Of a stretch of 64,000 nucleotides of DNA, positions 9,249 to 58,773 are shown piece by piece. Positions within the stretch are counted from its first letter, which is position 1. Every line of letters starts with the position of its first letter. Under the pieces are notes generated by a model. The model did no database searches. It was not told where the DNA came from and saw nothing but the letters and a program-made list of their open reading frames with translations. The stretch is from an uncultured Elusimicrobiales bacterium. Its GTDB lineage: Bacteria; Elusimicrobiota; Elusimicrobia; Elusimicrobiales; Elusimicrobiaceae. The DNA lies in NCBI GenBank assembly GCA_944327085.1, contig CALVGG010000002.1, positions 186,001 through 250,000 of the forward strand, given 5' to 3'. A program made the translations under genes and the position numbers.

Positions 9249-9567
9249 TTTCGCTCTCCCAAATTTCCAAACTTTTTAGTTTTAAATTCTCTTTTTTTAA
9301 CTTTTCCCCAATGGTTTTAAACAGGTGTTGGGCCAGCAGTTCGGCCGTGGGGTTGGGCAGGATATCGTTTAACAGTTGGTGGTCCGGCAGGTTGTCGTCC
9401 AGCAGTTTTTTGACGGTTTTAAAATCACACACCATGCCGTTGGGGGCAATTTCGCCCTCTATCACAAAAACGGCTTTCCAGGTATGTCCGTGCAGGTTGC
9501 GGCACGGACCGTTGTACCCCGGCAGATGATGGGCGGAACTGAAAGAACGAATTAATTTAATAAGCAT
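9223..9567 (-). CDS. queD: 6-carboxytetrahydropterin synthase
   Basis: QueD makes 6-carboxy-tetrahydropterin from dihydroneopterin triphosphate for queuosine. The 114-residue protein contains 'SFSSAHHLPGYNGPCRNLHGHTW': the first zinc His, the catalytic Cys, and the zinc pair HGH with canonical Cys-x3-HGH spacing. 'GMVCDFKTVKKLL', 'LNDILPNPTAELLAQHL' and 'WESENAAA' complete the family pattern. This contrasts with the second PTPS-family gene of the same operon, which lacks the Cys. Its ATG directly abuts the stop of the preceding DUF1189 gene. Confidence 0.94.
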   Translation of the reverse strand: MLIKLIRSFSSAHHLPGYNGPCRNLHGHTWKAVFVIEGEIAPNGMVCDFKTVKKLLDDNLPDHQLLNDILPNPTAELLAQHLFKTIGEKLKKENLKLKSLEIWESENAAAVAQD

Positions 9568-10308: not shown

Positions 10309-10320
10309 ATTGTTTATTAT
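10309..10320 (-). promoter_or_regulatory. Promoter of the pteridine operon, leaderless type
   Basis: TATAAT (minus strand, 10320-10315) followed by seven bases and the ATG of the DUF1189 gene. The expected transcription start falls on the ATG. Confidence 0.5.
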
Positions 10321-10441
10321 ACCAATTTATATAGTATAAAGCGGCTGTGTGCAATAGGGATAAAGGCTCCGTGGCGTAATGAAGTTAAAATAGGTACAAT
10401 GTTTCTATATGTTCCCAAAATATAAAGGGGAGGTTTACTCT

Positions 10442-20560: not shown

Positions 20561-21472
20561 TTAGAAAACTTCGTTTGCGTGCGGGTCACCGCCGTGGTTG
20601 TTGTTTTCCACCGGCTGATATTTGGTTTCCTGTTTAGAAGAACTGCACAGCGTGTTGTAGCCGGTGGCCGCACAGTGCTGGCCAGGGCGTACTTCTTCGC
20701 CGCAGGCGGCGCATGCATTGGCGGCTTTGGCGGCGGCTTTGCATGCGTGTTTTACGCCGTGGTAGCGTTCATCAATGGATAAAGCTTTGCCGCATTTGGG
20801 GCAGACGGCGCTGTCTTCCTGCACATTCTGGGCGGCCGGTTCTTCGTTAGAGGCGCTGCACAAGGTGGTGTAACCGGTGGCCGCACAGTGCTGGCCGGCG
20901 GAGTGGATTTCTTCGCCGCAGGCGGCGCATACGTGGCCGGCGGCTTTGCATTCGTGTTTTACACCGTGGTAGCGTTCGTCAATGGATAAAGCTTTTCCGC
21001 ATTTGGGGCAGACGGCGCTGTCTTCCTGCACATTCTGGGCGGCCGGTTCTTCGTTAGAGGCACTGCACAAGGTGGTGTAACCGGTAGCCGCACAGTGTTG
21101 GCCGGCGGAGTGAATTTCTTCACCGCAGGCGGCGCATACGTGTTTTGCCTGATCTTTTACCGCGGCCACTTTGGCGTGCGGGTCTTTACCCGTGTAGGGA
21201 GAGGGATTGGCGGATTTTCTGGCCTGGGCCGGGGAGGCTTGGCAAATGCCGCCTTTGGCACATTCCTGATGATATTTATCTAAAATGGTTTCCCCGCATT
21301 TGTGGCATTTGGCTTTTTGCTGGGCGCGGGCCTGCATAATGCGTCTTTGCAATACTTTTTCAATTTGCGCATTATCTTTTTTATTGGTTTTCTGTAAAGC
21401 AACCTGGGCTTGGGCACAAACAGCCAGGGTTAACAAACAACACACAGCGATTAAAATTTTATTGGTTTTCAT
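20561..21472 (-). CDS. Exported Cys-rich protein with 69-residue zinc-ribbon-like repeats
   Basis: 303 residues. A signal peptide (about 1-22, ending AQA) is followed by multiple CxxC modules. One unit contains 'CPKCGKALSIDERYHGVKH' and 'CAACGEEIHSAGQHCAATG'. Two copies are almost identical, offset by exactly 69 residues, with diverged copies at both ends ('CHKCGETILDKYHQEC' near residue 57 and 'CAACGEEVRPGQHCAATG' near the C-terminus). Each unit has two CxxC pairs plus His and Cys, as in zinc ribbons. That is unusual for a protein predicted to leave the cytoplasm. A GGRCC box array lies upstream. I do not recognise a named family; metal binding is inferred. Confidence 0.65.
   Translation of the reverse strand: MKTNKILIAVCCLLTLAVCAQAQVALQKTNKKDNAQIEKVLQRRIMQARAQQKAKCHKCGETILDKYHQECAKGGICQASPAQARKSANPSPYTGKDPHAKVAAVKDQAKHVCAACGEEIHSAGQHCAATGYTTLCSASNEEPAAQNVQEDSAVCPKCGKALSIDERYHGVKHECKAAGHVCAACGEEIHSAGQHCAATGYTTLCSASNEEPAAQNVQEDSAVCPKCGKALSIDERYHGVKHACKAAAKAANACAACGEEVRPGQHCAATGYNTLCSSSKQETKYQPVENNNHGGDPHANEVF
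20740..21150. repeat. In-frame tandem duplication, 207-base unit
   Basis: The stretch from about 20747 recurs 207 bases later from 20954 with only scattered single-base differences (for example GCTTTGCCGC at 20784 against GCTTTTCCGC at 20991). The period equals 69 codons, so the duplication keeps the frame and looks recent. Confidence 0.9.
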
Positions 21473-21534
21473 ATAGCCTCCGTAATTTGGTACTGCTTAT
21501 ACCACTAATATAAATATTTGTTTGTTTTTTGTGT

Positions 21535-21590
21535 AGGGTCTTTGGGCCTAGGCCTTTTGGCATTTTGGACCTACTGCCAGGCTGGGCCCT
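21535..21590. promoter_or_regulatory. GGRCC box array 1 (long form), upstream of the Cys-rich protein gene
   Basis: Boxes begin at 21536 (GGGTC), 21544 (GGGCC), 21567 (GGACC) and 21584 (GGGCC), so spacing is 8, 23 and 17. The second and third boxes are followed by TA. It lies about 63-118 bases before the start of the Cys-rich gene. Confidence 0.6.
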
Positions 21591-21606
21591 GCCTAACCCC
21601 TATAAA

Positions 21607-21635
21607 TAAAAACCCCCGGTTTGTACCGGGGGGTG
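21607..21635 (-). terminator. Terminator of the GREG-repeat protein gene
   Basis: Stem CCCCCGG / CCGGGGG around TTTGTA, with A tract on the plus strand (T tract on the minus strand). Confidence 0.8.
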
Positions 21636-21637
21636 AA

Positions 21638-22147
21638 TTATAAAGCTTGCAAACGGCCGGGTTCGGAAAGGCGTTCTATGACGGATTTTTCTTTTTTGGG
21701 CTGGGGTTTTGCCGGCTGTTTCTTTTCTTCTTTTTTATTTTCTTTTACTTCTTGGCGTTTTTCTTTTAAGCTGTTTACGGTGTTGCCCAGCTGCATCATG
21801 TGGCCTTCTCTTCCCATTAAATAAAAGGGGACAACGCTGTCCTTCTTGGTTTGTTTAGGTTTGGCGGCCTGTTTTTTTACTTCTTGCTTTTTGGCCTCCA
21901 ACGCGCGGTGCTGTAGGATGGATTCGGTCAGTTTGCTCAGGTCCATCATGCGGCCTTCGCGCCCCTGCACATAAAAAGGCTGAGGCTGTTTGGAAGGGGA
22001 AGCGGAATCTTTAGTAATTTTAAAATCAGGCCATTTCAGTTCCATTTTGGAACCTTCCGGGCCGGGCACTCTTTGGGCAAAGGCGGCTTGCCCTGCCAAC
22101 AAGCATACGGCGGCGGATATGAGGGTAACGGCGGTTTTTAAGTTCAT
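21638..22147 (-). CDS. Exported basic protein with two GREG-MM repeats
   Basis: 169 residues with a signal peptide (about 1-24, ending AFA). Two repeats follow: 'PFYVQGREGRMMDLSKLTESI' and 'PFYLMGREGHMMQLGNTVNSL', each succeeded by a Lys/Glu/Gln-rich, probably coiled stretch. The very end is 'SVIERLSEPGRLQAL'. No family is recognised. The combination of a conserved 12-residue motif and low-complexity charged linkers suggests a scaffold or binding protein in the periplasm. It shares an upstream region, containing a GGRCC array, with the divergent clpP gene. Confidence 0.6.
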   Translation of the reverse strand: MNLKTAVTLISAAVCLLAGQAAFAQRVPGPEGSKMELKWPDFKITKDSASPSKQPQPFYVQGREGRMMDLSKLTESILQHRALEAKKQEVKKQAAKPKQTKKDSVVPFYLMGREGHMMQLGNTVNSLKEKRQEVKENKKEEKKQPAKPQPKKEKSVIERLSEPGRLQAL

Positions 22148-22206
22148 GTGTTCGTTTCTCCTTTCTTAATATATAAATACTTTAAAAGTTTTTTTAAATT
22201 TGCACC

Positions 22207-22238
22207 AGGGTCAAAAGGCCTAAGCTGATGCTGGGCCT
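22207..22238. promoter_or_regulatory. GGRCC box array 2 (short form), between the GREG gene and clpP
   Basis: Boxes begin at 22208 (GGGTC), 22216 (AGGCC, followed by TA) and 22233 (GGGCC), spacing 8 and 17. It ends three bases before a TTGATA that may be the clpP -35 box. Confidence 0.6.
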
Positions 22239-45164: not shown

Positions 45165-46160
45165 ATGATTACGTTTGAAGGATACGAAAGAAGAATTGAT
45201 AAAATCAACTCCGTTTTGAAAGAAAACGGTATTGCTTCTTTGGAAGAAGCCAAAGAAATTTGCAACAAAAAAGGCATTGACGTTGAAAAAATCGTGCGCG
45301 GCATTCAGCCCATCGCTTTTGACAACGCCGTCTGGGCCTACACCGTGGGCGCCGCCATTGCCATTAAATCCGGCGTAAAAACCGCAGCTGAAGCGGCCGA
45401 AAAAATCGGCGTGGGCTTGCAGAGCTTCTGCATTCCCGGCTCCGTGGCCGATCAGCGCGCCGTGGGCTTGGGCCATGGTAATTTGGGCGCTATGTTATTG
45501 TCCGAAAATACCAAATGCTTCTGCTTCTTGGCCGGGCACGAAAGCTTTGCCGCGGCCGAAGGCGCCATCGGCATTGCCCGCACTGCCAACAAAGTGCGCA
45601 AAACCCCGCTTCGCGTTATCTTGAACGGTTTGGGTAAAGACGCCGCTTACATCATCTCCCGCATCAACGGTTTCACCTCCGTGGAAACGGAATACAACTA
45701 TAAAACGGGCGAACTGAAAATCGTGAGCGAAAAAGCTTTCTCCGACGGGGACCGCGCTAAAGTAAAATGCTACGGTGCTGACGACGTGAACGAAGGCGTA
45801 GCCATTATGCGCCACGAAGGGGTGGACGTATCCATTACCGGTAACTCCACTAACCCCACCCGCTTCCAGCATCCGGTTGCCGGTACCTATAAGAAATGGG
45901 CTACCGAAAACGGCAAAAAATATTTCTCCGTGGCTTCCGGCGGCGGCACCGGCCGCACCCTGCACCCGGACAATATGGCCGCCGGCCCTGCCTCCTACGG
46001 TATGACCGACACCATGGGCCGCATGCACAGTGATGCCCAGTTTGCCGGTTCTTCCTCCGTGCCTGCGCACGTGGAAATGATGGGCCTTATCGGCATGGGT
46101 AACAACCCGATGGTCGGCGCGACGGTAGCCGTTGCGGTGGCCGTAGCCGAAGCCAAATAA
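45165..46160 (+). CDS. GGGtGRT family protein
   Basis: 331 residues. Named for the motif seen here as 'ASGGGTGRTLHPDNMAAGPASYG' (about residues 260-282). Other conserved stretches are 'GIQPIAFDNAVWAYTVGAAIAIK', 'FCIPGSVADQRAVGLGHGNLGAMLLSENTKCFCFLAGHESFAAAEGAIGIARTANKVRK' and 'VSITGNSTNPTRFQHPVAGTYKKWA'. There is no signal peptide. The family is widespread in anaerobes but has no proven activity. The fixed pairing with a NifU-like protein suggests an iron-sulfur or redox enzyme. Codon use is strongly biased, as for an abundant protein. Confidence 0.88.
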   Translation: MITFEGYERRIDKINSVLKENGIASLEEAKEICNKKGIDVEKIVRGIQPIAFDNAVWAYTVGAAIAIKSGVKTAAEAAEKIGVGLQSFCIPGSVADQRAVGLGHGNLGAMLLSENTKCFCFLAGHESFAAAEGAIGIARTANKVRKTPLRVILNGLGKDAAYIISRINGFTSVETEYNYKTGELKIVSEKAFSDGDRAKVKCYGADDVNEGVAIMRHEGVDVSITGNSTNPTRFQHPVAGTYKKWATENGKKYFSVASGGGTGRTLHPDNMAAGPASYGMTDTMGRMHSDAQFAGSSSVPAHVEMMGLIGMGNNPMVGATVAVAVAVAEAK

Positions 46161-46179
46161 AAGTTGTTTTATTTGTTTG

Positions 46180-46212
46180 CAAGCCGCTCCGCAAGGGGCG
46201 GCTTGTTTTTTA
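46180..46212 (+). terminator. Terminator of the GGGtGRT module
   Basis: CAAGCCGC / GCGGCTTG stem followed by T6. Confidence 0.9.
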
Positions 46213-46225: not shown

Positions 46226-46249
46226 AGGGCCTATGTGCGGGTTGGGCCT
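46226..46249. promoter_or_regulatory. GGRCC box array 3 (minimal form), upstream of the exported-protein locus
   Basis: GGGCC-TA at 46227 and GGGCC at 46244, spacing 17 with nine bases between TA and TGGGCC. The upstream 8-base-spaced box is missing. The two boxes also form an imperfect hairpin. Confidence 0.5.
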
Positions 46250-46316
46250 TTTGACTCTTGCCCGCTCTCCATGGGATTTATATAGTATTTTTATATATTG
46301 CTATAAGGAGAGTTAC

Positions 46317-47249
46317 GTGAACAAAACCCTATTTATGCTTGTAGCCTCTTTGCTGCTGTTTCCCAATATGCTTTTTGGGCAAAAAGCAAAAGCTGTGCAA
46401 AAATTATTAAAATCCTGCCAGAACAAAGCCTATTGTTCTGCCGAACAAATGCAGCAGGCCCATGCCCAGGTGGAAAAAGCGGTGCAGCAGGCCATTGCCA
46501 AAAAAGCGCGCCAACAAGCCGCCAAATCCGCCAGCGTGAACTGGGAGTTGGGGGACTTCTTCCACACCCGTTATATTGAAACCACCGGCTTTGTTTTTCC
46601 TTTCGGAAAAATTGATTGGAGAAAAGCCGTTTTGAAATTTGGCGAGAAAAATTTTAAACAAGTGTTTGCCCGGGGATTGGAGGAATTATACCCTTCCGGC
46701 CGTTTTACTTTAATGCTCGTGCCGGAGTTGGAGCAAGTGCAGGAAATTTTTAAAACGCTTTGGTATAAAAACGGGCAAGAAGCCTCTGCCGCCGTGCAAA
46801 AGTTTTTGGACGATAAAACCTGGTACGGGCGCGATTATATTACCGTAAACGGTTATATTGTGGCCGTGGTGGACGGAAAGCAGCGCCCAATAAAAGATGT
46901 ATTATTTTTGGATTTAAAAAATAAAAAGTGGTGGTCTGTCAATCATAGCGTCAGCCGCGCAAACGCCATGAGACACCAAAACAAGTTAAACCTAATCAAA
47001 GAATATCACCCGGATACATGGGAAGAGTTAAATACGGTAGGTTTTGTATTGGATACCCGCCGCCAGGAAGTTTCTTATGACGGTATTCATTGGGTTCCCG
47101 TTTCTGCCCCTATGTTAAAGCAGTTAAAAGAATGGCAGAGAAAGAACAACTTTGTTTTGTTTACCCATAAAGGCTTGGCCGTAAAACGCGTGTTTAAAAA
47201 CCGCGCCGCTTACGAAGCCTGGAAGAAAGACCTGCGCAACGGAAAATAA
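46317..47249 (+). CDS. Exported protein of unknown function, family A member 1
   Basis: 310 residues from a GTG start at 46317, which follows AAGGAGAG by seven bases and begins a clean signal peptide (ending LFG). Mature N-terminus is helical (Gln/Ala/Lys-rich), then 'LEELYPSGRFTLMLVPE', 'VNGYIVAVVDGKQRPIKDVLFLDLKNKKWWSVN' and 'LNTVGFVLDTRRQEVSYDGIHWVPVSA'. The last two motifs recur in the next two exported proteins, defining a small paralogous family (D-x-L-x-L-D-hydrophobic, and G-F-hydrophobic..DGI-x-W). No known family is recognised. The gap to member 2 is 21 bases, so they form an operon. Confidence 0.6.
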   Translation: MNKTLFMLVASLLLFPNMLFGQKAKAVQKLLKSCQNKAYCSAEQMQQAHAQVEKAVQQAIAKKARQQAAKSASVNWELGDFFHTRYIETTGFVFPFGKIDWRKAVLKFGEKNFKQVFARGLEELYPSGRFTLMLVPELEQVQEIFKTLWYKNGQEASAAVQKFLDDKTWYGRDYITVNGYIVAVVDGKQRPIKDVLFLDLKNKKWWSVNHSVSRANAMRHQNKLNLIKEYHPDTWEELNTVGFVLDTRRQEVSYDGIHWVPVSAPMLKQLKEWQRKNNFVLFTHKGLAVKRVFKNRAAYEAWKKDLRNGK

Positions 47250-47270
47250 AATAAGGATTAAAGAGAAAAA

Positions 47271-48224
47271 ATGTTTCATAAAAAGAATTGGTTTATTTTG
47301 GTTTTAATTGTGTGCACACTGCCGGTATACGGGCAGGGAAATTTATTAAAAAACGGGATAAAAACCGTCTTGCCCAGGCAGCGGGCGGAAATTTCCCCGG
47401 CGATGGGCTTTGCCGCTGTGGACAATAAAACCCAGCGGGCCGTTTTGCAGGATTTACACGGTTTGGACGGCATTTTAAAAGGCTGCGCCAGTGGCTGCCT
47501 GTTGGACTGGCGGCTGGATAATTATGAAGGCAAATCCTTTTGGCTGATGGACAGCGCCCTGCCCGGTTTTGAAATGGATTGGACCGTTGCCCTGGAACAA
47601 TATGCCCAAAACCATGACGGCAGAAATTTTTTTGAAGATATGATGCCTGTTTTGCAATCCATATACCCCGGTGCGCGTTTTACGCCGCAGTATGCAGGCT
47701 CGTTTGCAGATGTGCTGGCTTTTTCCCGCCAGCCCGGGCACACGGGTGTGCGTTTAGGCAAAGCGCTTTTAAAAGCATGGCAAAACGCCAACCTGCCGGA
47801 GCATATGCCCGGTTTTGCCGTGGTGCGGGTGGAAGGAAAAGGCAACCGCCCCAAAGACGTATTAATACTGGATATTGCGCAGGAGAAGGCCTTTTCCCTC
47901 TTTAAAAGCCAAGGCTTTGCCGTGGCGCAGGAGTACAATTCCATCCGCAAATCCTGGGCCCGCTGGCATAAAAAAGCGGCCCTCCGTTTAAAAGAACAGG
48001 GTTTTGTGATTAACGAAAGAAAAAACTTAATCAGCAAAGACGGCGTTATCTGGGCGGATTTAAACACTTTGCCCAATAAACAAGCCCTGTTATATGCCTG
48101 GAAAAACGGCTTTCATGTGCGTTTTGAGCGTAGTGGCTGGAGCGGGAAAGCCGATTACAGCACGGCCTACCCCAAACCGCAAAAGCCTGCGCCCTCCGGG
48201 CAGTTAAAAGTATTGAAAAAATAA
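47271..48224 (+). CDS. Exported protein of unknown function, family A member 2
   Basis: 317 residues. Signal peptide 1-21 (ending VYG). Shared family motifs: 'FFEDMMPVLQSIYPGARFTPQYAGSFADVLAF' (about 124-155), 'VVRVEGKGNRPKDVLILDIAQEKAFSLFKSQGFAVAQ' (about 187-224), and 'LKEQGFVINERKNLISKDGVIWADLNTLPNKQALLYAWKNGFHVRFERSGW' (about 243-293). No catalytic signature is visible. Second gene of the 46.3 kb operon. Confidence 0.6.
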   Translation: MFHKKNWFILVLIVCTLPVYGQGNLLKNGIKTVLPRQRAEISPAMGFAAVDNKTQRAVLQDLHGLDGILKGCASGCLLDWRLDNYEGKSFWLMDSALPGFEMDWTVALEQYAQNHDGRNFFEDMMPVLQSIYPGARFTPQYAGSFADVLAFSRQPGHTGVRLGKALLKAWQNANLPEHMPGFAVVRVEGKGNRPKDVLILDIAQEKAFSLFKSQGFAVAQEYNSIRKSWARWHKKAALRLKEQGFVINERKNLISKDGVIWADLNTLPNKQALLYAWKNGFHVRFERSGWSGKADYSTAYPKPQKPAPSGQLKVLKK

Positions 48225-48293
48225 AAAACTGTGTGTGGCTTAGCGGTTGACGTTATTAAGCCTTTTTAAGTTGTATTAAACGCAGTGTATCCA

Positions 48294-48331
48294 AAGCCGT
48301 TGCAGCTTGTAAAGCCAGACGGCTTTTTTTT
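48294..48331 (+). terminator. Terminator of the family A member 1-2 operon
   Basis: AAGCCGT / ACGGCTT stem followed by T8. Confidence 0.8.
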
Positions 48332-48366
48332 AAAATAAAAATAACTTTCGTGTGCAAGGAGTGAAT

Positions 48367-49338
48367 ATGATGCCGGCTAAAAAAAGTTTTTTTGTTTTGT
48401 TGTTTGTTATGATGTGCAGCGGCCTTCTTTCTGCCCAGGGGCTGGCCGTAAGCCAGGGGGCCAAGCGTTTGGGTGCCAAAGCGGCCCGGCAGGCGGCGGC
48501 GCTGCCTAAAGCCGGCAAAGCGGCGCTCTCTAACCCGCAGCACCGGCAATTGCTGCGCCGAAATGAACGCTTGGAACAGGTTTTGGATAAAAAAGCCCGC
48601 TCCGCCCGTATGAAAACCAACGGCCATTTGGCGGGGGGATTATACCCCAACACGGCGGGCGGCTGGAATAAACTGGAAACGGATATCCCCGGTTTTGTGC
48701 GCAGCTGGCCCAAAGCGTTGGATAACTATGCCAAACAGCATAACGGGGCTGATTTTTTTGAAGACGTACAAAGCCAAATTTTAGCCATGTATCCCAAGGC
48801 TAAATTTTCGGCGGCGTTTGTGGCCTCATTTGACGAAGTTCTTTTGCTGGGGCGTGCGGTGCGCATGCCGTCCGTTTCTTTGCCGCAGGCTATTGAAAAT
48901 AATTTGGATAAGCTGTCTGCCTTGCATATGCCGGGGTACGCCGCCGTTATGGTGGATATGGGCGCCGGCAAACTGCGTGATATTTTAATTTTGGATATTA
49001 AAAACGAACGTATTATTTCCCTTAACCAAAGCCAGGGCCGCGCCTTGGCGCGTTTGGCGGCCAAACGCCGCCAGGCCTGGCGTGAGGAACACCCCAAATT
49101 GGCCGCCCGTTTGGATAAACAAGGCTTTGCCTTAGACGCCAAACACGTGTTAATTACCAAAGACGGCATCACCTGGGCGCCTTTGCCCCACGGGGAAATA
49201 CGCCGCAACCTGGTTTACGCCTGGGAATGGGGCTGGTATGTACAGTTCAAACACGGCAGCTGGCAGGTGGAAGGCTTTGCCGAAACCAAAGGCGCCCCTT
49301 TGCAGCAAACGGTTCCGCCGTTAAGGGCAGTGTTTTAA
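48367..49338 (+). CDS. Exported protein of unknown function, family A member 3
   Basis: 323 residues, signal peptide ending about 'GLLSAQG'. Same motifs as member 2 in the same order: 'FFEDVQSQILAMYPKAKFSAAFVASFDEVLLL', 'VMVDMGAGKLRDILILDIKNERIISLNQSQGRALARL', and 'LDKQGFALDAKHVLITKDGITWAPLPHGEIRRNLVYAWEWGWYVQFKHGSW'. An Ala/Lys/Arg-rich helical stretch precedes them. Start at ATG 48367, six bases after AAGGAG. The terminator upstream separates it from members 1 and 2. Confidence 0.6.
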   Translation: MMPAKKSFFVLLFVMMCSGLLSAQGLAVSQGAKRLGAKAARQAAALPKAGKAALSNPQHRQLLRRNERLEQVLDKKARSARMKTNGHLAGGLYPNTAGGWNKLETDIPGFVRSWPKALDNYAKQHNGADFFEDVQSQILAMYPKAKFSAAFVASFDEVLLLGRAVRMPSVSLPQAIENNLDKLSALHMPGYAAVMVDMGAGKLRDILILDIKNERIISLNQSQGRALARLAAKRRQAWREEHPKLAARLDKQGFALDAKHVLITKDGITWAPLPHGEIRRNLVYAWEWGWYVQFKHGSWQVEGFAETKGAPLQQTVPPLRAVF

Positions 49339-49377
49339 GGGGATTGTAAAGTAGGCAAAAAGGGTTAAACTTATAGT

Positions 49378-49971
49378 ATGAAAAAATTTATTTTATTATG
49401 TTTTGCAGTGGCGGTATCGTTGGCGGCAGGGGCACAGCAGGTGGAGGTAAAAACTCCGCACGAGGGCCCGGTGGCCGTTTCCAACGATATGGCCGTTTTA
49501 TTAAAACAGGTAGATAAAAATTTTGACGCGCGCGAACGCCTGTTTGAAGGCGGCCGCACCAAATGGCGCACCCAAATGGCCAAAGACGCCATTAACCACG
49601 CGTTTGATATGCCGGGCGCCTGTGAAGAATATTTAAAGATGGACGTGCTGGCACAGCGTTTGCAGGATATGCAGGAGACGGAAATTTCCGCACGTATGCT
49701 GGTGGTGCTGTATCCGGGCAAAAAACTGCAGCCGGCCCTTAAAAAATTATTGAACGACCCTAACAAGCAGGCCGATGTTTTTATTTGGGCGGATATGGCT
49801 TATGTAGAGGCGTGCAGTGTGCTTTCGGCCGTGCCGGTGGCAAACCCGCCGCAGGAAGAAAAAGATTTTGCACAGCTGTATATGCAGCGGGCGCAGTGGC
49901 TGGCTGGGTTAACTGATAAAAATTTAAAAGTGGCTTTAAAAGCGGCCCGTGAACGCTTGAACGAATTTTAA
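49378..49971 (+). CDS. Exported protein of unknown function
   Basis: 197 residues with a signal peptide (1-19, ending AGA). Mature part is helical and charged, with 'GGRTKWRTQMAKDAINHAFDMPGACEEYLKMDVLAQRL'. No family recognised. TATAGT directly abuts the ATG, and the only ribosome-site-like run (AGGG) is 13 bases away. It is followed after eight bases by the zincin gene, so the two are co-transcribed. Confidence 0.55.
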   Translation: MKKFILLCFAVAVSLAAGAQQVEVKTPHEGPVAVSNDMAVLLKQVDKNFDARERLFEGGRTKWRTQMAKDAINHAFDMPGACEEYLKMDVLAQRLQDMQETEISARMLVVLYPGKKLQPALKKLLNDPNKQADVFIWADMAYVEACSVLSAVPVANPPQEEKDFAQLYMQRAQWLAGLTDKNLKVALKAARERLNEF

Positions 49972-49979
49972 GAGGATAT

Positions 49980-51233
49980 ATGATGAAACGTCTGTTACTG
50001 GCAATGGTTTTGGCCGGGTTTTCTTTACCGGCGTGGGCGTGGGCTTTTTTGGATGCGGCAAACCCCACCGCCGGCGGCTGGCTGTTGCCTAAAATACTGT
50101 CCGGGCGCCCCGTGCGGGTATGTGTGGATGTGCTTTCCCGCCGGGTAGATGAGGCCACCCGCCGCCGCCAAACCGTGCCCTACCGGGGGGAGCATTTAGC
50201 GGATTATTATCAGCAGTCCGCTGCCGTGGTGCAAACGGCTTACCGGGCTTGGTTTGACGGGTTGGAATCTCAAATTCGTCAAGCCAAACGCAAAAAAGAA
50301 TTTAAAGATTTGCTTGCACTTACTGAGCGGCCTGCGTCTTTTATATTTATAAACGGCCCGCAAAGTGCGCAGCCCTATGCGCCGTGTGAAGAATTGCAGA
50401 ATATTGATTTGCGCGTGCGCGCCACCCTGTTTAAACAATCTTCCGGCGGGCATGCCGTGCAGCAGGGGCGGGCCTCTTTTACTTTTTGGCTTCAGCCTCA
50501 AAACACCGGTATTGACGAGCCGGACGAGCCCCAATTTGTAATGGGGGAACGCTCCTCTTTGCAAATAGCCCTGCACGAAGTGGGCCATACTTTGGGCTTG
50601 GGGGATTTGTACGCCGGCGATAATAACCCGGAAAACAGCCCCGTGTATACTTTGGCTTCTTTTTATCCGTCCAAAGCCGTTTCTTCGGTTATGAATAACG
50701 CGGCCGAACTAACGTGCGACGATGCCGACGGACTGGCCAATTTGTTGGACTTTTTTGCCCCGTCCTCTTCTTCCCGCCGCACCAAAGGGTGGGTGAGCCT
50801 GTGCCCGCAGCGCATGCTGGCCTATGCCGAGGGGCTGCCTTTTCAAATCACTGCCACGCAGCAACAGCAGCTGCTGGCTTTTGCCCAAAGCGGTTGGAAA
50901 GGGGCCAGCCCGGTGCAAACGCAAATAGAGGCTGCCCGGCAGGCGGCCTTAACGGCCAGCCAAAACCAAGCCCAAACCCGGGCCCGCAGCCGGCAGGCGG
51001 CCCAAACATTAAAACAATCCTTAAATGCTGCCCAACCGGCCCCAAAGGCCTATAAAGCGCATACTTGCGCTTTGTGCGGTAAGGAAATTGATGAAGACGG
51101 CGCCGTCCGTTTATCTTACGCCAAAAAAGGCGTTTGGGCGTTTTTGCATAAAGAGTGCAACGCCAAACGCAAACAGCAAGGGGTAAAAATTCCCCCGGCC
51201 AATTTGCTTAAATACGGGGAACCGATTAAATAG
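49980..51233 (+). CDS. Exported zincin metalloprotease with C-terminal zinc-ribbon-like module
   Basis: 417 residues: signal peptide (1-20, ending AWA). The central part holds the metzincin active site HEVGHTLGLGD (H-E-x-x-H-x-x-G-x-x-D, about residue 199) and a Met-turn candidate 'SSVMNN' 40 residues later. A long Gln/Ala-rich helical linker follows (about 285-355), then 'CALCGKEIDEDGAV...FLHKEC', a C-x-x-C plus H-x-x-C zinc-ribbon-like module. The catalytic Glu and zinc ligands are present, so it should be an active peptidase in the periplasm or outside. The third ligand is Asp, as in some matrixin relatives. The ribbon recalls the Cys-rich protein at 20.6 kb. AGAGGA ribosome site. Confidence 0.8.
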   Translation: MMKRLLLAMVLAGFSLPAWAWAFLDAANPTAGGWLLPKILSGRPVRVCVDVLSRRVDEATRRRQTVPYRGEHLADYYQQSAAVVQTAYRAWFDGLESQIRQAKRKKEFKDLLALTERPASFIFINGPQSAQPYAPCEELQNIDLRVRATLFKQSSGGHAVQQGRASFTFWLQPQNTGIDEPDEPQFVMGERSSLQIALHEVGHTLGLGDLYAGDNNPENSPVYTLASFYPSKAVSSVMNNAAELTCDDADGLANLLDFFAPSSSSRRTKGWVSLCPQRMLAYAEGLPFQITATQQQQLLAFAQSGWKGASPVQTQIEAARQAALTASQNQAQTRARSRQAAQTLKQSLNAAQPAPKAYKAHTCALCGKEIDEDGAVRLSYAKKGVWAFLHKECNAKRKQQGVKIPPANLLKYGEPIK

Positions 51234-51239
51234 TTTTTC

Positions 51240-51266
51240 AGCCCGGTCAAAAGCCGGGTTTTTTGT
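51240..51266 (+). terminator. Terminator of the zincin gene
   Basis: AGCCCGG / CCGGGTT stem and T6. Confidence 0.85.
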
Positions 51267-51345
51267 GTATAGGTACTAGTGCGTTTTATTGCTTGAAAAA
51301 GCCTGCTATCTTTTCCATACTATTAGTAGGGGTAAGGAGGATTTT

Positions 51346-51897
51346 ATGAAGAAAAAAATTTTATTGAGTGCTTTGCTTTTGGTGGGTATTTTGGCCGTTA
51401 CGCTGCCATTAACCACGGCACCTGCCTTTGATGCCAAGTCTTTTAAAGCACAGCAAATTGCCGCCCCGGCCAATCTGGATATGCTGCGGGAGCGGCTGGA
51501 TAAATTGGGAGGGGAAAACTTAAGCCTGGCGTTTGTGTTGGGGGTAAAATCCAAAGAGGCGCTGGCGTTTTCCAGCTCGGTTTTGGCTTATCAGGATTAT
51601 TCCCAAAAACGTTCCCTGGGTATTTTGATGGGGGCGGCCATTCAAAATGCGTCCAACCCTTTGGCTATGCAGCGGGTGCGGGATTCGGAATATAAAAAAC
51701 TGTTGGCTTCTGCCCCGCAGGAACAATACGGGGTAGAGACCACTTTTCAAACCCTAAACGAACTGATTAAAATGAACGATGAGGCCTTATCTGGCGTGGT
51801 GGGGTTAGCTAAACGCCTGAACCCGCAGGACCGTGCCTTAGACCAAACCAAAAAAGCCTTAAAGCAGGCCGCACGCACAGCAGCCAAACAAAAATAA
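51346..51897 (+). CDS. Exported helical protein of unknown function
   Basis: 183 residues, start at ATG 51346 behind AAGGAGG. The signal peptide is long and hydrophobic, ending near 'TTAPAFDAK'. The mature part is predicted helical with no Cys and a basic Ala/Lys-rich end ('DQTKKALKQAARTAAKQK'). No family recognised. Monocistronic. Confidence 0.55.
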   Translation: MKKKILLSALLLVGILAVTLPLTTAPAFDAKSFKAQQIAAPANLDMLRERLDKLGGENLSLAFVLGVKSKEALAFSSSVLAYQDYSQKRSLGILMGAAIQNASNPLAMQRVRDSEYKKLLASAPQEQYGVETTFQTLNELIKMNDEALSGVVGLAKRLNPQDRALDQTKKALKQAARTAAKQK

Positions 51898-51904
51898 ACT
51901 TTTC

Positions 51905-51931
51905 ATACCCCCGTAACAGGGGGTATTTTTA
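51905..51931 (+). terminator. Terminator of the helical exported protein gene
   Basis: TACCCCC / GGGGGTA stem and T5. Confidence 0.88.
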
Positions 51932-51943
51932 TGTTTAAATAAG

Positions 51944-52025
51944 CCTGTGCACGCATACTGCCCATGCGCCGCTAATCGGCCTATAGCGGGTGTTAACGTG
52001 CGGCGGCGTATATATGCGGTGCAGG
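51944..52025. ncRNA. Candidate long hairpin RNA or palindromic element in a convergent intergenic region
   Basis: Outer stem GTGCACGCATA (51948-51957 region) with TATGCGGTGCA (52013-52023) and inner stem CGCCGC (51967-51972) with GCGGCG (52000-52005), separated by an internal loop. It is bounded by terminators of both convergent genes. No promoter stands out, and strand cannot be decided. Confidence 0.28.
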
Positions 52026-52028
52026 ACA

Positions 52029-52058
52029 TAAAAAACCCCGCTTTGGGCGCGGGGTTAC
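52029..52058 (-). terminator. Terminator of the small polytopic membrane protein gene
   Basis: AACCCCGC / GCGGGGTT stem with T6 on the minus strand. Confidence 0.85.
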
Positions 52059-52077
52059 CGGTACAAACTGGGAAAAG

Positions 52078-52716
52078 TTAAAAAGAGATAAAGGCCGTTT
52101 TCCATAAATATCCGGCCCACAGGCAGCCGCCCGCCAACAGGGAAACGCCTGCCGGTATAATGTCTGTTATTTGAAAAAGGTTTGGCACTTCTTTGCCTGT
52201 CAATGCGTTTAACCGGTATTGCAACCGGGCCGCAACAGCGGCAAAAATGGCCAAGCAAACCAGTTTATACCACCCGGGTAAGATAATTGAGCCGGCGACG
52301 CAAATAATCCATACAGTGCCGGAAAACCACGCCGCCATGGAAGGGCGTTTGTGCATATAAAGGCAAGTGCGGTTGATAATACCCGCCAGTTGGTAAAAAG
52401 TAACAGCACCAAACAAAGCCCGCCATACAGGCCAGCCTTTAAGCGGCTGGCGTGCGGTGTTTAAGTAGCCTTTGGCGACGGATTTCCATTGTTTGTACAG
52501 CCAGTAAAATGCATATATGCCGCCTGTACAAAAAATATAAATAAATAATTTCCACGCGCCGGTAAAGTAATAGGCATTGCTTAAACCTTGGCGTTTAAGT
52601 TCGTCTTTTTGGGCGCGGCGTTTGGCTTCGGTGGTGTAATCCCAGCGGCGCAAAGTAAAAAAATAAATGGCGTATAAACCGCCAAACACAACTACAAAAT
52701 CAAGCCATCTTTCCAT
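52078..52716 (-). CDS. Polytopic membrane protein of unknown function
   Basis: 212 residues with about five membrane helices ('FVVVFGGLYAIYFFTL', 'LFIYIFCTGGIYAFYWLYKQWK', 'FSGTVWIICVAGSIILPGWYKLVCLAIFA', 'IIPAGVSLLAGGCLWAGYL'). The motif G-G-I-Y-x-F-Y-W-x-Y-K-Q-W recalls DUF4234/DUF898-type membrane proteins, but the match is weak. I set the start at 52716 because TGCTATAAT ends six bases before this ATG with no ribosome site; upstream in-frame codons overlap that promoter. Its promoter lies within the end of the next minus-strand gene. Confidence 0.6.
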   Translation of the reverse strand: MERWLDFVVVFGGLYAIYFFTLRRWDYTTEAKRRAQKDELKRQGLSNAYYFTGAWKLFIYIFCTGGIYAFYWLYKQWKSVAKGYLNTARQPLKGWPVWRALFGAVTFYQLAGIINRTCLYMHKRPSMAAWFSGTVWIICVAGSIILPGWYKLVCLAIFAAVAARLQYRLNALTGKEVPNLFQITDIIPAGVSLLAGGCLWAGYLWKTAFISF

Positions 52717-52731
52717 AGGGTTATTATAGCA
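52717..52731 (-). promoter_or_regulatory. Leaderless-type promoter (extended -10)
   Basis: TTGCTATAAT followed by six bases and ATG on the minus strand. The arrangement is the same as before rbfA at 63730. Confidence 0.55.
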
Positions 52732-52732
52732 A

Positions 52733-53434
52733 TTACGGGGCGGGTTGTAAGTCGGCAAAAATCAGGCGGGATACAAAATCCACCTTTATTTTTAACCAAA
52801 GGCCCTGGGCTTGTGCGGGGGCAAACCACAGGGTGGCTTCTTTGGGGGATACTTGCAGTTTGGCAGGTTCAAAAGGCCAATTTTTTAAAGCGCCGTACGG
52901 GGTGCGTTGTTCAAACAGACGGCCAAGAATATCTTTCATATCTGCCGTATAGGGGCTGGAGGGGGCAATTTTAAAGCGCTCGTCGCTATACAATACATGG
53001 CGAGTGGGGCGGAAAGTATAGGCCTGAAGCGCGGGGTTTTTATCCAGTTTTAACTGGTAAAAACGCAGCGGTTCCCTTAAGCGGCGTAAGTGGCGCTGTT
53101 TAAAAATATCCTGTTCTTCCTGTGTATAGGTGGAGGGAATTAAGCCGTTTATTTGGTCCAACATATTTTGCACGCCGGGGGAAGCGGGCCCCATAGCCTT
53201 TTGAGCATAACGCAGGCTTACGATGTCTTTTTCCACCAGTTTTTTTAATTCTTCTTTTATTTTAAGGCGTGTTTCAGTGGGCTTTTGGGCAAAGAAATTT
53301 TGCAAAAATTGGTATTTGGGGCGTTCCTGCCGGCTCTCCCAAAAGGGCCCAGCCCAACCGGGGGTATATAAAATAACCCCCATTAAAAAAGCCGCCAGGC
53401 CTTTTGGGATAAACAATATAAGCCTATTTTTCAT
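52733..53434 (-). CDS. Exported protein of unknown function, family B member 2
   Basis: 233 residues with a signal peptide (ending WAG). The second half, 'NPALQAYTFRPTRHVLYSDERF...TPYGALKN...LWFAPAQAQGLWLKIKVDFVSRLIFADL', lines up with the neighbouring exported protein ('LPALNSYALTVQHPADLYSVSTEE...TPYRALQ...VVLSFKTNQSQEIHLAFKPQENILKIAVGD'), so the two are probably diverged paralogs. The gene overlaps that neighbour by 11 bases. No known family. Confidence 0.55.
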   Translation of the reverse strand: MKNRLILFIPKGLAAFLMGVILYTPGWAGPFWESRQERPKYQFLQNFFAQKPTETRLKIKEELKKLVEKDIVSLRYAQKAMGPASPGVQNMLDQINGLIPSTYTQEEQDIFKQRHLRRLREPLRFYQLKLDKNPALQAYTFRPTRHVLYSDERFKIAPSSPYTADMKDILGRLFEQRTPYGALKNWPFEPAKLQVSPKEATLWFAPAQAQGLWLKIKVDFVSRLIFADLQPAP

Positions 53435-54035
53435 TTAGTTCTTGGGGGAAAGGGCCAAATTCCTGTTGGGAGATGGGAAAATCCCCCACGGCAATTTTTA
53501 AAATATTTTCCTGGGGTTTAAATGCCAGGTGTATTTCTTGGCTTTGGTTGGTTTTAAACGAAAGGACCACCGCGCCGGATTCAAACTGTAATGCCCGGTA
53601 AGGGGTAGGAGACGGCTCTTTAGACTGCTTTGTAAAAGAAGCAAAAACCTGGTCCAGCAGGGCTATTTCCTCGGTGGAAACAGAGTATAAATCAGCCGGG
53701 TGCTGAACGGTTAAAGCATAGCTGTTTAAAGCGGGCAGCGCGTGCAGGCGGGTATAAATATGCCGGTAATTTTGCATAATGCGCTGTTGGGCTGCGGCAG
53801 ACGGATAAAATTGTTTTACGGTAAGCAAAAATGCGTCCTGCGCTTGCTGTTGCTGGCGCGTGGCGGACTGACTGCCCGTTTGCTGGGAAGAAAGCACATT
53901 GTTTTTTATTTCTTTAATGGTTTGCGCCGCCTTGGTTTTTTGCAATACGATGCTTTGCCAGTTTTGGGCATAAAGCGGGGCAGAAGCAAACAGAAAAATA
54001 AAAATAAAATACCCGGCGGTATTCAGTGCACGCAT
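53424..54035 (-). CDS. Exported protein of unknown function, family B member 1
   Basis: 203 residues from ATG 54035, nine bases after AAGGAG; an earlier ATG at 54056 overlaps the ribosome site. Signal peptide ends 'LYAQN'. A Gln/Ser-rich segment ('SSQQTGSQSATRQQQQAQ') follows, then the part shared with family B member 2. Predicted periplasmic or outer-membrane associated. GGRCC array 4 lies 50-80 bases before the start. Confidence 0.55.
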   Translation of the reverse strand: MRALNTAGYFIFIFLFASAPLYAQNWQSIVLQKTKAAQTIKEIKNNVLSSQQTGSQSATRQQQQAQDAFLLTVKQFYPSAAAQQRIMQNYRHIYTRLHALPALNSYALTVQHPADLYSVSTEEIALLDQVFASFTKQSKEPSPTPYRALQFESGAVVLSFKTNQSQEIHLAFKPQENILKIAVGDFPISQQEFGPFPQELNEK

Positions 54036-54084
54036 AAATAAAATCTCCTTAACCACAGGATAAAAATTTTTATTGCCCCGCGCC

Positions 54085-54116
54085 AGGGCCTTTGGGCCTA
54101 CATTTCAGGTGGGCCC
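54085..54116. promoter_or_regulatory. GGRCC box array 4 (short form), upstream of family B
   Basis: Boxes GGGCC at 54086, 54094 (followed by TA) and 54111, spacing 8 and 17. Confidence 0.6.
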
Positions 54117-54145
54117 CCGGGCGGGGAAAGACGCAGGCAATAAAT

Positions 54146-54177
54146 AAGCCCCGCATATAAAAGCGGGGCTTTTATAA
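54146..54177 (-). terminator. Terminator of the 54.2 kb exported-protein gene
   Basis: AAGCCCCGC / GCGGGGCTT stem. Confidence 0.88.
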
Positions 54178-54188
54178 GTTAAAATAAC

Positions 54189-54737
54189 TTAATATTTAAT
54201 ACCGTATTTACCGGTATTTTCCAGACTTTTCATCCACAGTTTAAAAAACTTTTTGGTGCGTTGGGCTTTGGCGTCTTTTACGGCCTGGCGCATTTTGTTA
54301 AGCTGCACCTGCACCAAATACAGATGGTGGTTATTATCGGCATTAAATACAATTCCGTCTTTTTCCAATAATTCACCGGCGGCTTTAAACGCTTTTAAAA
54401 GTTCCCGGTTGCGGCTTTGCATTCTTTTATAGTTGGAACGCGCGAGCATACTTTCGGACAAACGCATCATGGCAAATTCTTCCGTGCCTTGCAAGAAAGG
54501 GTTTTGTTTGGCTAAAGCATCGGCGGCGGAATTTAAAGTGCTTTGGGCGTTAGTTTCTAAAATGTCTTTTACGGCTTTGTATAAGTCAGAAAAAGTATAG
54601 CCTTGGGGCAAAGTTTTGCTGGCTTGTTGGGCCGCTTGTTTAAGAGGGTTCAGTTCGGCCGATACGGGGGCAGGCTGAGCCATGGCGGCACAAGTAAAAA
54701 ACAGCATGCTTAACACGGCGAATAGTTGCTTTTTCAT
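54189..54737 (-). CDS. Exported helical protein of unknown function
   Basis: 182 residues, signal peptide (1-20, ending AMA). The mature part is nearly all helical and basic, with 'LNPLKQAAQQASKTLPQGYTFSDLYKAVKDIL' and a Lys-rich end. No Cys, no recognised domain. GGRCC array 5 lies in the shared upstream region with typA. Confidence 0.55.
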   Translation of the reverse strand: MKKQLFAVLSMLFFTCAAMAQPAPVSAELNPLKQAAQQASKTLPQGYTFSDLYKAVKDILETNAQSTLNSAADALAKQNPFLQGTEEFAMMRLSESMLARSNYKRMQSRNRELLKAFKAAGELLEKDGIVFNADNNHHLYLVQVQLNKMRQAVKDAKAQRTKKFFKLWMKSLENTGKYGIKY

Positions 54738-54794: not shown

Positions 54795-54859
54795 AGGGCC
54801 AGAAAGGGCCAAAGGACCTATTTTTTTCTGTTTTTTGGGCCTATGTTTTTCCTGGGCCC
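54795..54859. promoter_or_regulatory. GGRCC box array 5 (long form, most complete), between an exported-protein gene and typA
   Basis: Boxes begin at 54796, 54806, 54814 (GGACC), 54837 and 54854, the rest GGGCC. The last four have spacing 8, 23 and 17. The third and fourth are followed by TA. Confidence 0.65.
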
Positions 54860-54961: not shown

Positions 54962-56800
54962 ATGAATAATACCCGTCAGGACGTAAGAAACGTGGCCATT
55001 ATTGCCCACGTAGACCACGGCAAAACCACCATTGTGGATGCTTTGTTAAAATTTGCAGGCCAGTTTAACGTAAAAGAAGGCCAGGCGCAGGAAACGGTGC
55101 TGGATTCCAACCCGTTGGAGCGCGAACGCGGCATTACCATTTTGGCCAAATGCACTTCCATTGAATATAAAAACCATACCATTAATATTGTAGACACCCC
55201 CGGCCATGCCGATTTCGGCAGCGAGGTGGAACGCGTATTGCGCATGGTGGACGGCGCCATCCTGATGGTGGACGCGGTGGAAGGCCCCATGCCGCAAACC
55301 CGCTTTGTGCTTCGCAAAGCGTTGGCTTTGGGCCTGCGCCCGATTGTGGTCATTAACAAAATGGACCGCGACCATATCCGCCCCAGCGAAGTGGTGGACG
55401 AAGTTTTCAACCTGTTTATGGAGCTGGGCGCTACGGATGAACAATTGGATTTCCCTATTATTTACGCTTCCGGCCGCGCCGGCTGGGCCAGCTTAAAAAT
55501 GGAAGAACGCGGCAAGGATATTGCCCCGGTGCTGGATACGATTTTGGAACATGTGCCCGCCCCGGTGGCCATGCCGGATGCACCCCTGCAAATGCAGGTA
55601 ACCATGCTGGACTATAACAACTTTTTGGGCCACGTGGGTATTGGCCGCATTTTGGCGGGCAAAGTAACCCGCGGGCAAAATGTGGTGCTGATTCATCACG
55701 ACGGGTCCACCACTCCGGCCAAAGCTGTTAAGATTGAACGTTTTATGGGCCTTGGCAAGCAGGATTTGGAAAGCGCCAGCGCGGGGGACATTGTGTCCAT
55801 CGCCGGCCTGGAAGGCGTGGACGTGGGAGATACCATCTGCCAGCCGGACGCTTTAAAACCGCTTCCGCCCCTGGCTATTGACGAGCCCACCATGTCTATG
55901 GACTTCCTGGTGAACGACAGCCCCTTTGCCGGCAGAGAAGGCAAATTTGTTACCAGCCGCCACTTGAAAAACCGTTTGGAAAAAGAAGCCCAAACCAACG
56001 TGGGGTTGAAAGTGGAACAGCTGGAAGGGGAAGGCCGCTTTAAAGTATACGGCCGCGGGGAATTGCATTTAACCATTTTAATTGAAAATATGCGCCGCGA
56101 AGGCTTTGAGCTGGCGGTATCCTCCCCCGAAGTAATTTATAAAGAGGAAAACGGCCAAATCCTGGAACCTATGGAATACCTTATTTTGGATATCCGCAGT
56201 GAATTCCAAGGCGCCGTTTTTACCATGTTGGGCACCCGCGCCGCCAAGCTGGAAAATATGGTGGCCGAAGGCGAAGACCGCCTGCGCCTGGAATATTTAA
56301 TTCCGTCCCGCGCGCTGATTGGTTTTAAAAACGAATTTTTAACCAATACTCGCGGCACCGGTATTATGCACCACAGCTTTAAAGGTTTTTACCCCAAGGT
56401 AAACCTGCCGCCCCTGCGCCACAACGGCGTGCTGATTGCCAAGGAAGACGGCGAAACCACGCCTTATGCTTTGTTTGCGCTGGAAAATAACGGCGAGCTG
56501 TTCCTGGGCCCCAACGTAAAAGTGTACGCGGGGGAAATTGTGGGCCAAAACTCCCGCGATAATGACTTGGTGGTAAACCCCTGCAAGGCCAAACACTTAA
56601 GCAATATGCGCAGTAAAGCAAGTGATGAGTCCTACACCCTTACCCCGCCCCGCATTATGAGCTTGGAACAAGCCGTGGAATACATCGCGCCGGACGAATT
56701 GGTGGAAATTACCCCCACATCTTTGCGTTTGCGTAAGAAGATTCTTTCCCACTTGCTTCGCAAACGTACCGAACGCGCCAACGAGGAAGAAGAAGCTTAA
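54962..56800 (+). CDS. typA: Ribosome-associated GTPase TypA/BipA
   Basis: 612 residues, normal length. GTPase domain with G1 'AHVDHGKTT', 'RERGITI' (switch I), 'DTPGHADF' and 'NKMD'. Then come EF-G-like domains II, III and V and the TypA C-terminal domain ('GQILEPMEYLILDIRSEFQGAVFTMLGTRAAKLENM', 'RALIGFKNEFLTNTRGTGIMHHSFKGFYP'). It assists 50S ribosome assembly under stress or cold. Its long upstream region contains GGRCC array 5 and a TATACT box near 54914; no close ribosome site is seen. Confidence 0.95.
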   Translation: MNNTRQDVRNVAIIAHVDHGKTTIVDALLKFAGQFNVKEGQAQETVLDSNPLERERGITILAKCTSIEYKNHTINIVDTPGHADFGSEVERVLRMVDGAILMVDAVEGPMPQTRFVLRKALALGLRPIVVINKMDRDHIRPSEVVDEVFNLFMELGATDEQLDFPIIYASGRAGWASLKMEERGKDIAPVLDTILEHVPAPVAMPDAPLQMQVTMLDYNNFLGHVGIGRILAGKVTRGQNVVLIHHDGSTTPAKAVKIERFMGLGKQDLESASAGDIVSIAGLEGVDVGDTICQPDALKPLPPLAIDEPTMSMDFLVNDSPFAGREGKFVTSRHLKNRLEKEAQTNVGLKVEQLEGEGRFKVYGRGELHLTILIENMRREGFELAVSSPEVIYKEENGQILEPMEYLILDIRSEFQGAVFTMLGTRAAKLENMVAEGEDRLRLEYLIPSRALIGFKNEFLTNTRGTGIMHHSFKGFYPKVNLPPLRHNGVLIAKEDGETTPYALFALENNGELFLGPNVKVYAGEIVGQNSRDNDLVVNPCKAKHLSNMRSKASDESYTLTPPRIMSLEQAVEYIAPDELVEITPTSLRLRKKILSHLLRKRTERANEEEEA

Positions 56801-58719: not shown

Positions 58720-58773
58720 AGGGCCATTGGACCCAAAATAAAAAATATTTTGTACCTAGAAGCATTTGGGCCT
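58720..58773. promoter_or_regulatory. GGRCC box array 6 (long form), upstream of the TPR lipoprotein
   Basis: Boxes begin at 58721 (GGGCC), 58729 (GGACC), 58752 (GTACC, followed by TA) and 58768 (GGGCC), spacing 8, 23 and 16. A TATAAT box follows at 58781-58786. Confidence 0.58.

What the first reader, a model, noticed from the sequence alone, without database searches (positions are those of the whole stretch)
46317..54737. A nearly continuous 8 kb locus of exported proteins of unknown function
Ten genes in a row: family A (three), a helical protein, a zincin, another helical protein, a membrane protein, family B (two) and a further helical protein. Nine have clear signal peptides, and apart from the zincin none matches a family I know. 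Three GGRCC arrays (46.2, 54.1 and 54.8 kb) lie at the edges or within. This could be an undescribed secreted or periplasmic system with a protease as its only recognisable enzyme.
Basis: partly seen in the sequence, partly recalled or inferred. Interest (0 to 1): 0.62.

Follow-up and report, generated by a model that had tools for sequence, protein, structure and literature searches.

The report
Co-regulated island of exported proteins
An 8 kb stretch of a gut bacterium's genome carries fast-changing exported proteins of unknown function and one protease, and most of its exported genes appear to be switched on through a promoter element shared with dozens of other exported-protein genes across the genus.

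Summary
The ten genes are real: reading frames are conserved in relatives under purifying selection (dN/dS 0.10-0.36), and 9 of 10 pass a simple signal-peptide test. No curated Pfam or NCBIfam cut-off is met. The enzyme is a metzincin-like protease; its motif is invariant in 9 of 9 homologues. Confident models of families A and B match no solved fold.

It is not one conserved machine. The space between two near-invariant genes (GGGtGRT and TypA) runs from 202 to 8,805 bp in 39 genomes, with changing cargo; this window holds the largest.

The three 'GGRCC arrays' are promoter elements: a dyad (GGRCCYA-N9-TRGGYC) and a downstream box (TRGGYCYWWWGRCYCT) ending at a -35-like position, with a -10 hexamer at fixed spacing. 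The box occurs 31 times exactly in this genome and in 66 of 66 genus genomes. Of 30 own-genome sites, 24 face a signal-peptide gene starting within 100 bp, against 3 of 30 facing the other way. I read this as an undescribed regulon of exported proteins. The regulator and the proteins' functions remain unknown.

The parts
45165..46160 (+). left fixed flank, GGGtGRT-type gene (name recalled from its sequence motif)
   Evidence: 98.8% identical in G005; found in 54 of 66 genus genomes at E<=1e-100
46179..46206 (+). terminator-like hairpin after the left flank gene
46227..46249 (+). dyad GGRCCYA-N9-TRGGYC, upstream of A1
   Evidence: orthologous conservation
46243..46258 (+). box TRGGYCYWWWGRCYCT reading toward A1
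46258..46286 (+). promoter TTGCCC-17-TATAGT abutting the box
46317..47249 (+). A1, exported, family A
   Evidence: GTG start
47271..48224 (+). A2, exported, family A
48311..48326 (+). terminator-like hairpin between A2 and A3
48367..49338 (+). A3, exported, family A; AF2 mean pLDDT 83.6
49378..49971 (+). H1, exported helical protein
49980..51233 (+). exported metzincin-like protease with C-terminal Cys/His motif
51240..51260 (+). terminator-like hairpin after the zincin
51346..51897 (+). H2, exported helical protein; no box upstream
51905..51926 (+). terminator-like hairpin between convergent H2 and TM
52078..52716 (-). TM, resident membrane protein, weak DUF4234 similarity
52733..53434 (-). 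B1, exported; AF2 mean pLDDT 84.1
53424..54035 (-). B2, exported; overlaps B1 start
54085..54100 (-). box reading toward B2
54094..54116 (.). dyad upstream of B2
54189..54737 (-). H3, exported helical protein
54805..54820 (-). box reading toward H3
54837..54859 (.). dyad upstream of H3
54962..56800 (+). right fixed flank, TypA/BipA-type GTPase (name recalled from sequence)
   Evidence: 98% identical in G005

Best explanation
The locus is a lineage-variable cargo site. Between two fixed housekeeping genes lies a resident membrane-protein gene (TM), next to which species of this gut Elusimicrobiota genus gain, lose and rapidly diverge genes for Sec-exported proteins. In this genome the cargo is three family A proteins, H1, a metzincin-like protease, H2, B1, B2 and H3. 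Three promoters (before A1, B2 and H3) carry the same element: a 7-9-7 dyad and a box ending at the -35 position, with a sigma70-like -10 at fixed spacing. I infer that one dimeric DNA-binding regulator, most likely an activator because of where it sits, binds there and switches on these operons together with about 30 (exact matches) to 65 (one mismatch) sites in the genome, most of those examined before exported-protein genes. The products would pass the inner membrane by Sec, be cut by signal peptidase I (often exposing Gln), and act in the periplasm or at the surface, with the metzincin cutting or maturing proteins there. Shown by computation: genes, selection, cargo variation, the element, its position, orientation and genus-wide link to exported genes. 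Inferred: the regulator, activation, final location and biological role.
For: Interval 202-8,805 bp in 39 genomes with both flanks and changing gene families. Flanks 98-99% identical while cargo is 57-81% identical in G005. dN/dS 0.10-0.36. Orthologous intergenic DNA keeps the GGNCC blocks while its surroundings drift. Dyad 308 against 28 control in 66 genomes. Of 67 dyad sites examined, 58 have an exported-protein start within 150 bp; controls 80 of 600 random positions and 23 of 46 gene-upstream positions, p=2.8e-5 for the latter. Box: 24 of 30 own sites face a signal-peptide gene within 100 bp, 3 of 30 in the opposite orientation, 217 of 2,100 random positions. -10 hexamer at a fixed 22-nt offset: T 0.75, A 0.75, final T 0.88. 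Box in 66 of 66 genus genomes, 5-38 copies each, control mostly 0. In the 150.5 kb of intervals scanned, 26 boxes were found; 24 could be assigned and all 24 face an exported cargo gene, none the resident TM, H2 or pilin-like genes.
Against: No regulator gene was found. The signal-peptide test is crude and lenient: 21 of 47 other window genes also pass in the same test, so the enrichment over gene starts is about twofold (p=0.002); it is stronger by orientation and against random positions. 6 of 30 own sites and 9 of 67 genus sites have no such gene nearby; one window box (58720-58735) precedes a glycosyltransferase-like gene. A3, H1, zincin and H2 have no box of their own, and a terminator-like hairpin lies between A2 and A3, so co-transcription of A3-zincin with A1 is uncertain. 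Neither expression nor binding data exist here.
Confidence: 0.7

Rival explanations
1. The ten genes form one dedicated secreted or periplasmic machine, with the protease as its enzyme.
For: Same gene order in the window genome and G076, near-complete in G005, reduced in G070 and G072; nine exported products.
Against: Genes come and go singly across 50 genomes: zincin without A in G025, G033, G068 and G028; A without zincin in G074, G063 and G073; H2+TM alone in G024 and G086. H2 lacks the shared element. Zincins also occur in a six-gene tandem array elsewhere (G003).
Confidence: 0.12
2. The GGRCC elements are repeats of another kind: DNA-uptake sequences, REP-like or mobile intergenic palindromes, or methylation sites.
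For: GGNCC is a palindromic core of a type that restriction-modification enzymes recognise (recalled); many sites are near-perfect dyads.
Against: Only 31 exact box copies in 1.67 Mb, strongly oriented (24 against 3 of 30) and at fixed spacing to a -10 hexamer; plain GGNCC is not enriched.
Confidence: 0.08
3. The element is part of the core promoter recognised by an alternative sigma factor rather than an operator for a separate regulator.
For: The box end coincides with the -35 position and has fixed spacing to the -10.
Against: The upstream part is a symmetric dyad, and in some promoters it lies further upstream of the box, as expected of a separate dimeric regulator; the -10 is ordinary TANNNT.
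Confidence: 0.12

Closest known systems
Regulons defined by a shared operator next to the -35 element (class II activator arrangement; general knowledge)
   Same: Dyad plus box directly upstream of a sigma70-like promoter, repeated before many genes of one functional class
   Different: Regulator unknown; element not matched to a known one; most targets examined are undescribed exported proteins; at full strength only in this genus and genus g12
Metzincins of MEROPS families M6, M7 (snapalysin), M66 and M10 (serralysin, matrixin)
   Same: HExxHxxGxxD/H zinc motif, downstream Met and CDD stretch; weak profile hits to snapalysin and serralysin and to M66/M6 models
   Different: Below every curated cut-off; own N-terminal part and a C-terminal CxxC...HxxxC motif in most of the nine homologues
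Bacteroidetes Q-rule (PMC5837995, PMC10653852; seen: search listing, start of abstract and matched passages)
   Same: Gln right after the predicted signal-peptide cleavage site in 23 of 25 own regulon proteins and 30 of 44 in the genus set, by a rule that prefers Gln; 6 of 24 controls
   Different: Another phylum; the word Elusimicrob occurs 0 times in both papers; glutaminyl cyclase not looked for
Variable gene cargo between conserved flanks (chromosomal hotspots; general knowledge)
   Same: Fixed flanks, empty to full intervals, different gene families
   Different: No integrase, adjacent tRNA or phage family at the site

Membership tests
metzincin metalloprotease | HExxHxxGxx(H/D) zinc-binding motif | tested here: met
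   invariant H199, E200, H203, G206, D209 in 9 of 9 sequences
metzincin metalloprotease | Met-turn after the zinc motif | tested here: inconclusive
   Met238 invariant in 9 of 9, but no structure of the zincin was predicted
MEROPS M66 or M6 (as curated models) | curated family cut-off (Pfam M66, NCBIfam M6 domain) | tested here: not met
   M66 18.7 bits of 20.6; M6 domain 20.4 of 110.8
bacterial regulon with shared operator | same element upstream of many genes, oriented and spaced relative to the promoter | tested here: met
bacterial regulon with shared operator | functionally coherent targets | tested here: met
   24 of 30 own sites and 58 of 67 genus sites before exported proteins; lenient test, controls given
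bacterial regulon with shared operator | identified regulator that binds the element | not tested
   no candidate found; binding needs an experiment
DNA-uptake sequence | highly over-represented short word spread over coding and intergenic DNA | tested here: not met
   31 exact copies, promoter-positioned; plain GGNCC not enriched
mobile genomic island or prophage | integrase, tRNA target or phage proteins | tested here: not met
   no PHROG hit for 10 proteins, no Pfam integrase at cut-off, only tRNA of the window 4.7 kb away
dedicated secretion system | export ATPase or outer-membrane channel in the locus | tested here: not met
   no such family among the ten proteins
solved folds (families A and B) | significant structural match | tested here: inconclusive
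   no Foldseek hit at E<=0.001; best re-aligned Z 4.8 and 4.0

The most novel reading that the evidence does not exclude
One undescribed regulator runs a genus-wide exportome regulon in gut Elusimicrobiota: 30-65 promoters in this genome driving rapidly evolving exported protein families without recognised folds, which share a leader style (signal peptide, exposed Gln, and in this species a basic Ala-rich helix) and are swapped at fixed chromosomal sites. It would act as a surface or host-interaction programme specific to these bacteria.
Probability: 0.45. Interest if true: 0.75.

Novelty: new variant of a known kind. Interest (0 to 1): 0.6.

Why it matters
Gut Elusimicrobiota are known mostly from assembled genomes, and a large share of their small genomes codes for exported proteins nobody can name. 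A promoter element that marks most of one class of them gives a way to list, order and test these proteins as a programme instead of one by one, and gives bait to find the regulator. The fixed-flank site shows where species differ in what they send outside, which is where adaptation to host or neighbours would be expected.

Tried and rejected
GGNCC abundance as the signal: rejected, not enriched.

One B family: direct profile comparison of B1 and B2 failed; a weak link through a third family remains. A against B: no link beyond the leader.

Known folds: sequence search of solved structures with profiles of A, B, H2 and zincin gave only metzincin hits worth naming, for the zincin. Foldseek and the second look gave for A3 only long-helix and RuBisCO-small-subunit-like rows (best Z 4.8 and 4.2) and for B1 RelE- and NTF2-like rows (Z up to 4.0); all too weak to name.

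Prophage or mobile origin: no PHROG hit. Regulator: only looked for by eye among genes next to sites; none found. Basic N-terminal helix as a genus-wide mark: clear in the own genome (mean net charge 4.4 against 0.8, p=1e-4) but weak in the wider genus set (0.9 against -0.4, p=0.03), so not claimed genus-wide.

Literature: the searches (Elusimicrobi with regulon/palindrom; Elusimicrobiota secreted proteins gut; Elusimicrobium minutum pilin; Elusimicrobia gut-associated protein families; Avelusimicrobium; Elusimicrobiaceae genome gut) listed nothing on such an element; only listings and starts of abstracts were seen.

Rows dropped before counts: one search entered 50 of the 54 genomes with the left flank (G003, G013, G022, G089 left out for short or unfetched pieces); one search used 67 of 70 loci (two at contig edges, one duplicate); one search used 25 of 30 sites (two without an ORF, three with a non-exported or doubtful one), and its control set contains one protein (L163_5214) that is also the regulon protein L265; the 40 extra loci came from six genomes chosen for having many sites. 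Differing counts for the same 30 sites: one search gave 22 with its own start rule, flags 26 at distances up to 420 bp (one of them a doubtful 76-residue ORF), one search gives 24 within 100 bp; I quote because its controls used the same rule.

Full report
Setting. The window lies on contig C2 (186001-250000) of a 1.67 Mb genome assembly.

Observation. In relative G005 the nine shared genes keep their frames at 57-81% amino-acid identity with dN/dS 0.14-0.36; A2, compared with G076, gives 0.23; the flanking GGGtGRT and TypA genes are 98-99% identical with dN/dS 0.03-0.05. Nine of ten pass my signal-peptide test. None of the ten reaches a curated Pfam or NCBIfam cut-off and none has a PHROG hit.

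The protease. It has HEVGHTLGLGDLY, a downstream Met and CDD; these residues are invariant in nine homologues, its own included. The best sequence hits among solved structures are snapalysin (E 0.007), serralysins and matrix metalloproteases. It is metzincin-like but below the cut-offs of M66 and M6. Homologues occur in 33 of 37 genus genomes and 0 of 24 other genomes of the order searched, sometimes as tandem arrays (six in G003).

The other families. Family A: the three window copies plus relatives align over a common domain. With a profile, hits occur in 33 of 149 genomes of the order, all in this genus; a few of these cover only the N-terminal part. Models of A3 (mean pLDDT 83.6, core mostly above 90) and B1 (84.1) find no solved structure at Foldseek E<=0.001, and the second look gives best Z 4.8 and 4.0, which the tool warns is common. 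So the folds are unrecognised, not proven new.

Not one machine but a cargo site. I took the DNA after GGGtGRT in 50 genomes. In 39 TypA follows on the same piece, always in the same orientation, 202 to 8,805 bp away; the window has the largest gap. The profile of the membrane gene TM matches in 30 of the 50, family A in 24 proteins, H2 in 13, zincin in 9; type IV pilin-like genes form a cluster of 18, and other exported families appear. The full ten-gene set is seen only in the window genome and G076. This is a fixed site with changing exported cargo, not a conserved ten-part system. No integrase or adjacent tRNA marks it.

The element. Four places in the window match GGNCCTA-N9-TNGGNC: 21567, 46227, 54094 and 54837, the last three before A1, B2 and H3. 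In orthologous intergenic DNA of up to four relatives these blocks are the conserved part. The dyad GGRCCTA-N9-TRGGYC occurs 308 times in 66 genus genomes, both strands counted (so symmetric sites count twice), against 28 for the reversed control. Seventy sites were fetched; 67 were usable, and 58 have an exported-protein start within 150 bp, against 80 of 600 random window positions and 23 of 46 positions upstream of other window genes.

In the direction of transcription the dyad is followed by a second box, TRGGYCYWWWGRCYCT. This 16-mer occurs 31 times exactly (control 0) and 65 times with up to one mismatch (control 3) in the own genome. Of the 30 exact sites returned as loci, 24 have a signal-peptide gene starting within 100 bp downstream; read in the opposite direction only 3 do; random positions give 217 of 2,100; positions 50 bp upstream of other window genes give 21 of 47, which shows both that the test is lenient and that this genome is rich in exported and membrane proteins. 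The downstream sequences align without gaps to show T(0.75)A(0.75)NNN T(0.88) at 22 nt after the box, so the end of the box falls at the -35 position with a 17-nt spacer; for A1 this is TTGCCC-17-TATAGT. Across the order the box occurs 5-38 times in each of 66 genus genomes and 20-21 times in each of three g12 genomes, but only 0-8 times in each of the other genomes, most of them with larger chromosomes.

Back at the locus. Across the intervals scanned (150.5 kb) there are 26 boxes at up to one mismatch, in 18 genomes; from the own-genome control rate about 0.3 would be expected (my estimate). 24 could be assigned to a gene and all 24 face an exported cargo gene: A, B2, B1-like, H3, a zincin or other families. 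None faces the resident TM, H2 or pilin-like genes. The other two were unassigned because the simple gene caller missed the ORF; one search lists an exported start downstream for both. The box therefore travels with one class of exported cargo, not with the site.

Leader. Of the 25 own regulon proteins examined, 23 have Gln directly after the predicted cleavage site, against 6 of 24 control proteins, and their first 40 mature residues carry net charge +4.4 against +0.8 (p=1e-4). The cleavage rule favours Gln in both sets, and the control set is impure. In the genus set Gln is found in 30 of 44, while the charge effect is weak. This resembles the Q-rule of Bacteroidetes (PMC5837995, PMC10653852; listing, start of abstract and matched passages seen), which the 2018 abstract calls specific to that phylum.

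Mechanism, step by step. Shown by computation: real genes, export signals (crude test), changing cargo, shared promoter element, its orientation and fixed spacing. Inferred: a dimeric regulator binds dyad and box and activates; products act outside the inner membrane; the metzincin processes proteins there. The regulator was not found. A3, H1 and the zincin may be read from the A1 promoter or from their own, since a terminator-like hairpin lies between A2 and A3.

Verdict. The locus itself is a lineage-specific exported-protein site of moderate interest. The promoter element that ties it to dozens of other exported-protein genes is the more valuable result, and it makes a previously shapeless set of proteins testable as one regulon.

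Noticed in passing
window 20561-22222: Two further exported-protein genes on the - strand (20561-21472 and 21638-22147), each with a box upstream (21535-21550 and 22207-22222).
   Followed up: partly
window 58720-58735: A box upstream of a glycosyltransferase-like gene on the - strand, the one clear non-exported target in the window.
   Followed up: no
L109 (G003:C37) 3720-11574: Six zincin paralogues in tandem in another species of the genus.
   Followed up: no
L267 (G000:C10:10583): A second zincin-like gene in the own genome, also with a box 52 bp upstream.
   Followed up: partly
GGGtGRT-TypA interval in 50 genus genomes: Eighteen type IV pilin-like genes ([17 protein letters not shown]) sit in this interval in other species, without the box.
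   Followed up: partly
own-genome regulon proteins L238, L248, L260, L261; L240, L241; L239, L245: Several further paralogous families of exported proteins among the box targets (BLAST E 8e-5 to 2e-29).
   Followed up: no
window 54189-54737 (H3): H3 matches the family A profile weakly (E 2e-4), perhaps only through the leader region.
   Followed up: no
signal peptides of the genus: Gln directly after the cleavage site is common, like the Bacteroidetes Q-rule, in another phylum.
   Followed up: partly
window 52078-52716 (TM): The membrane protein is the most constant gene of the interval (30 of 50 genomes by profile) and has only weak DUF4234 similarity.
   Followed up: no
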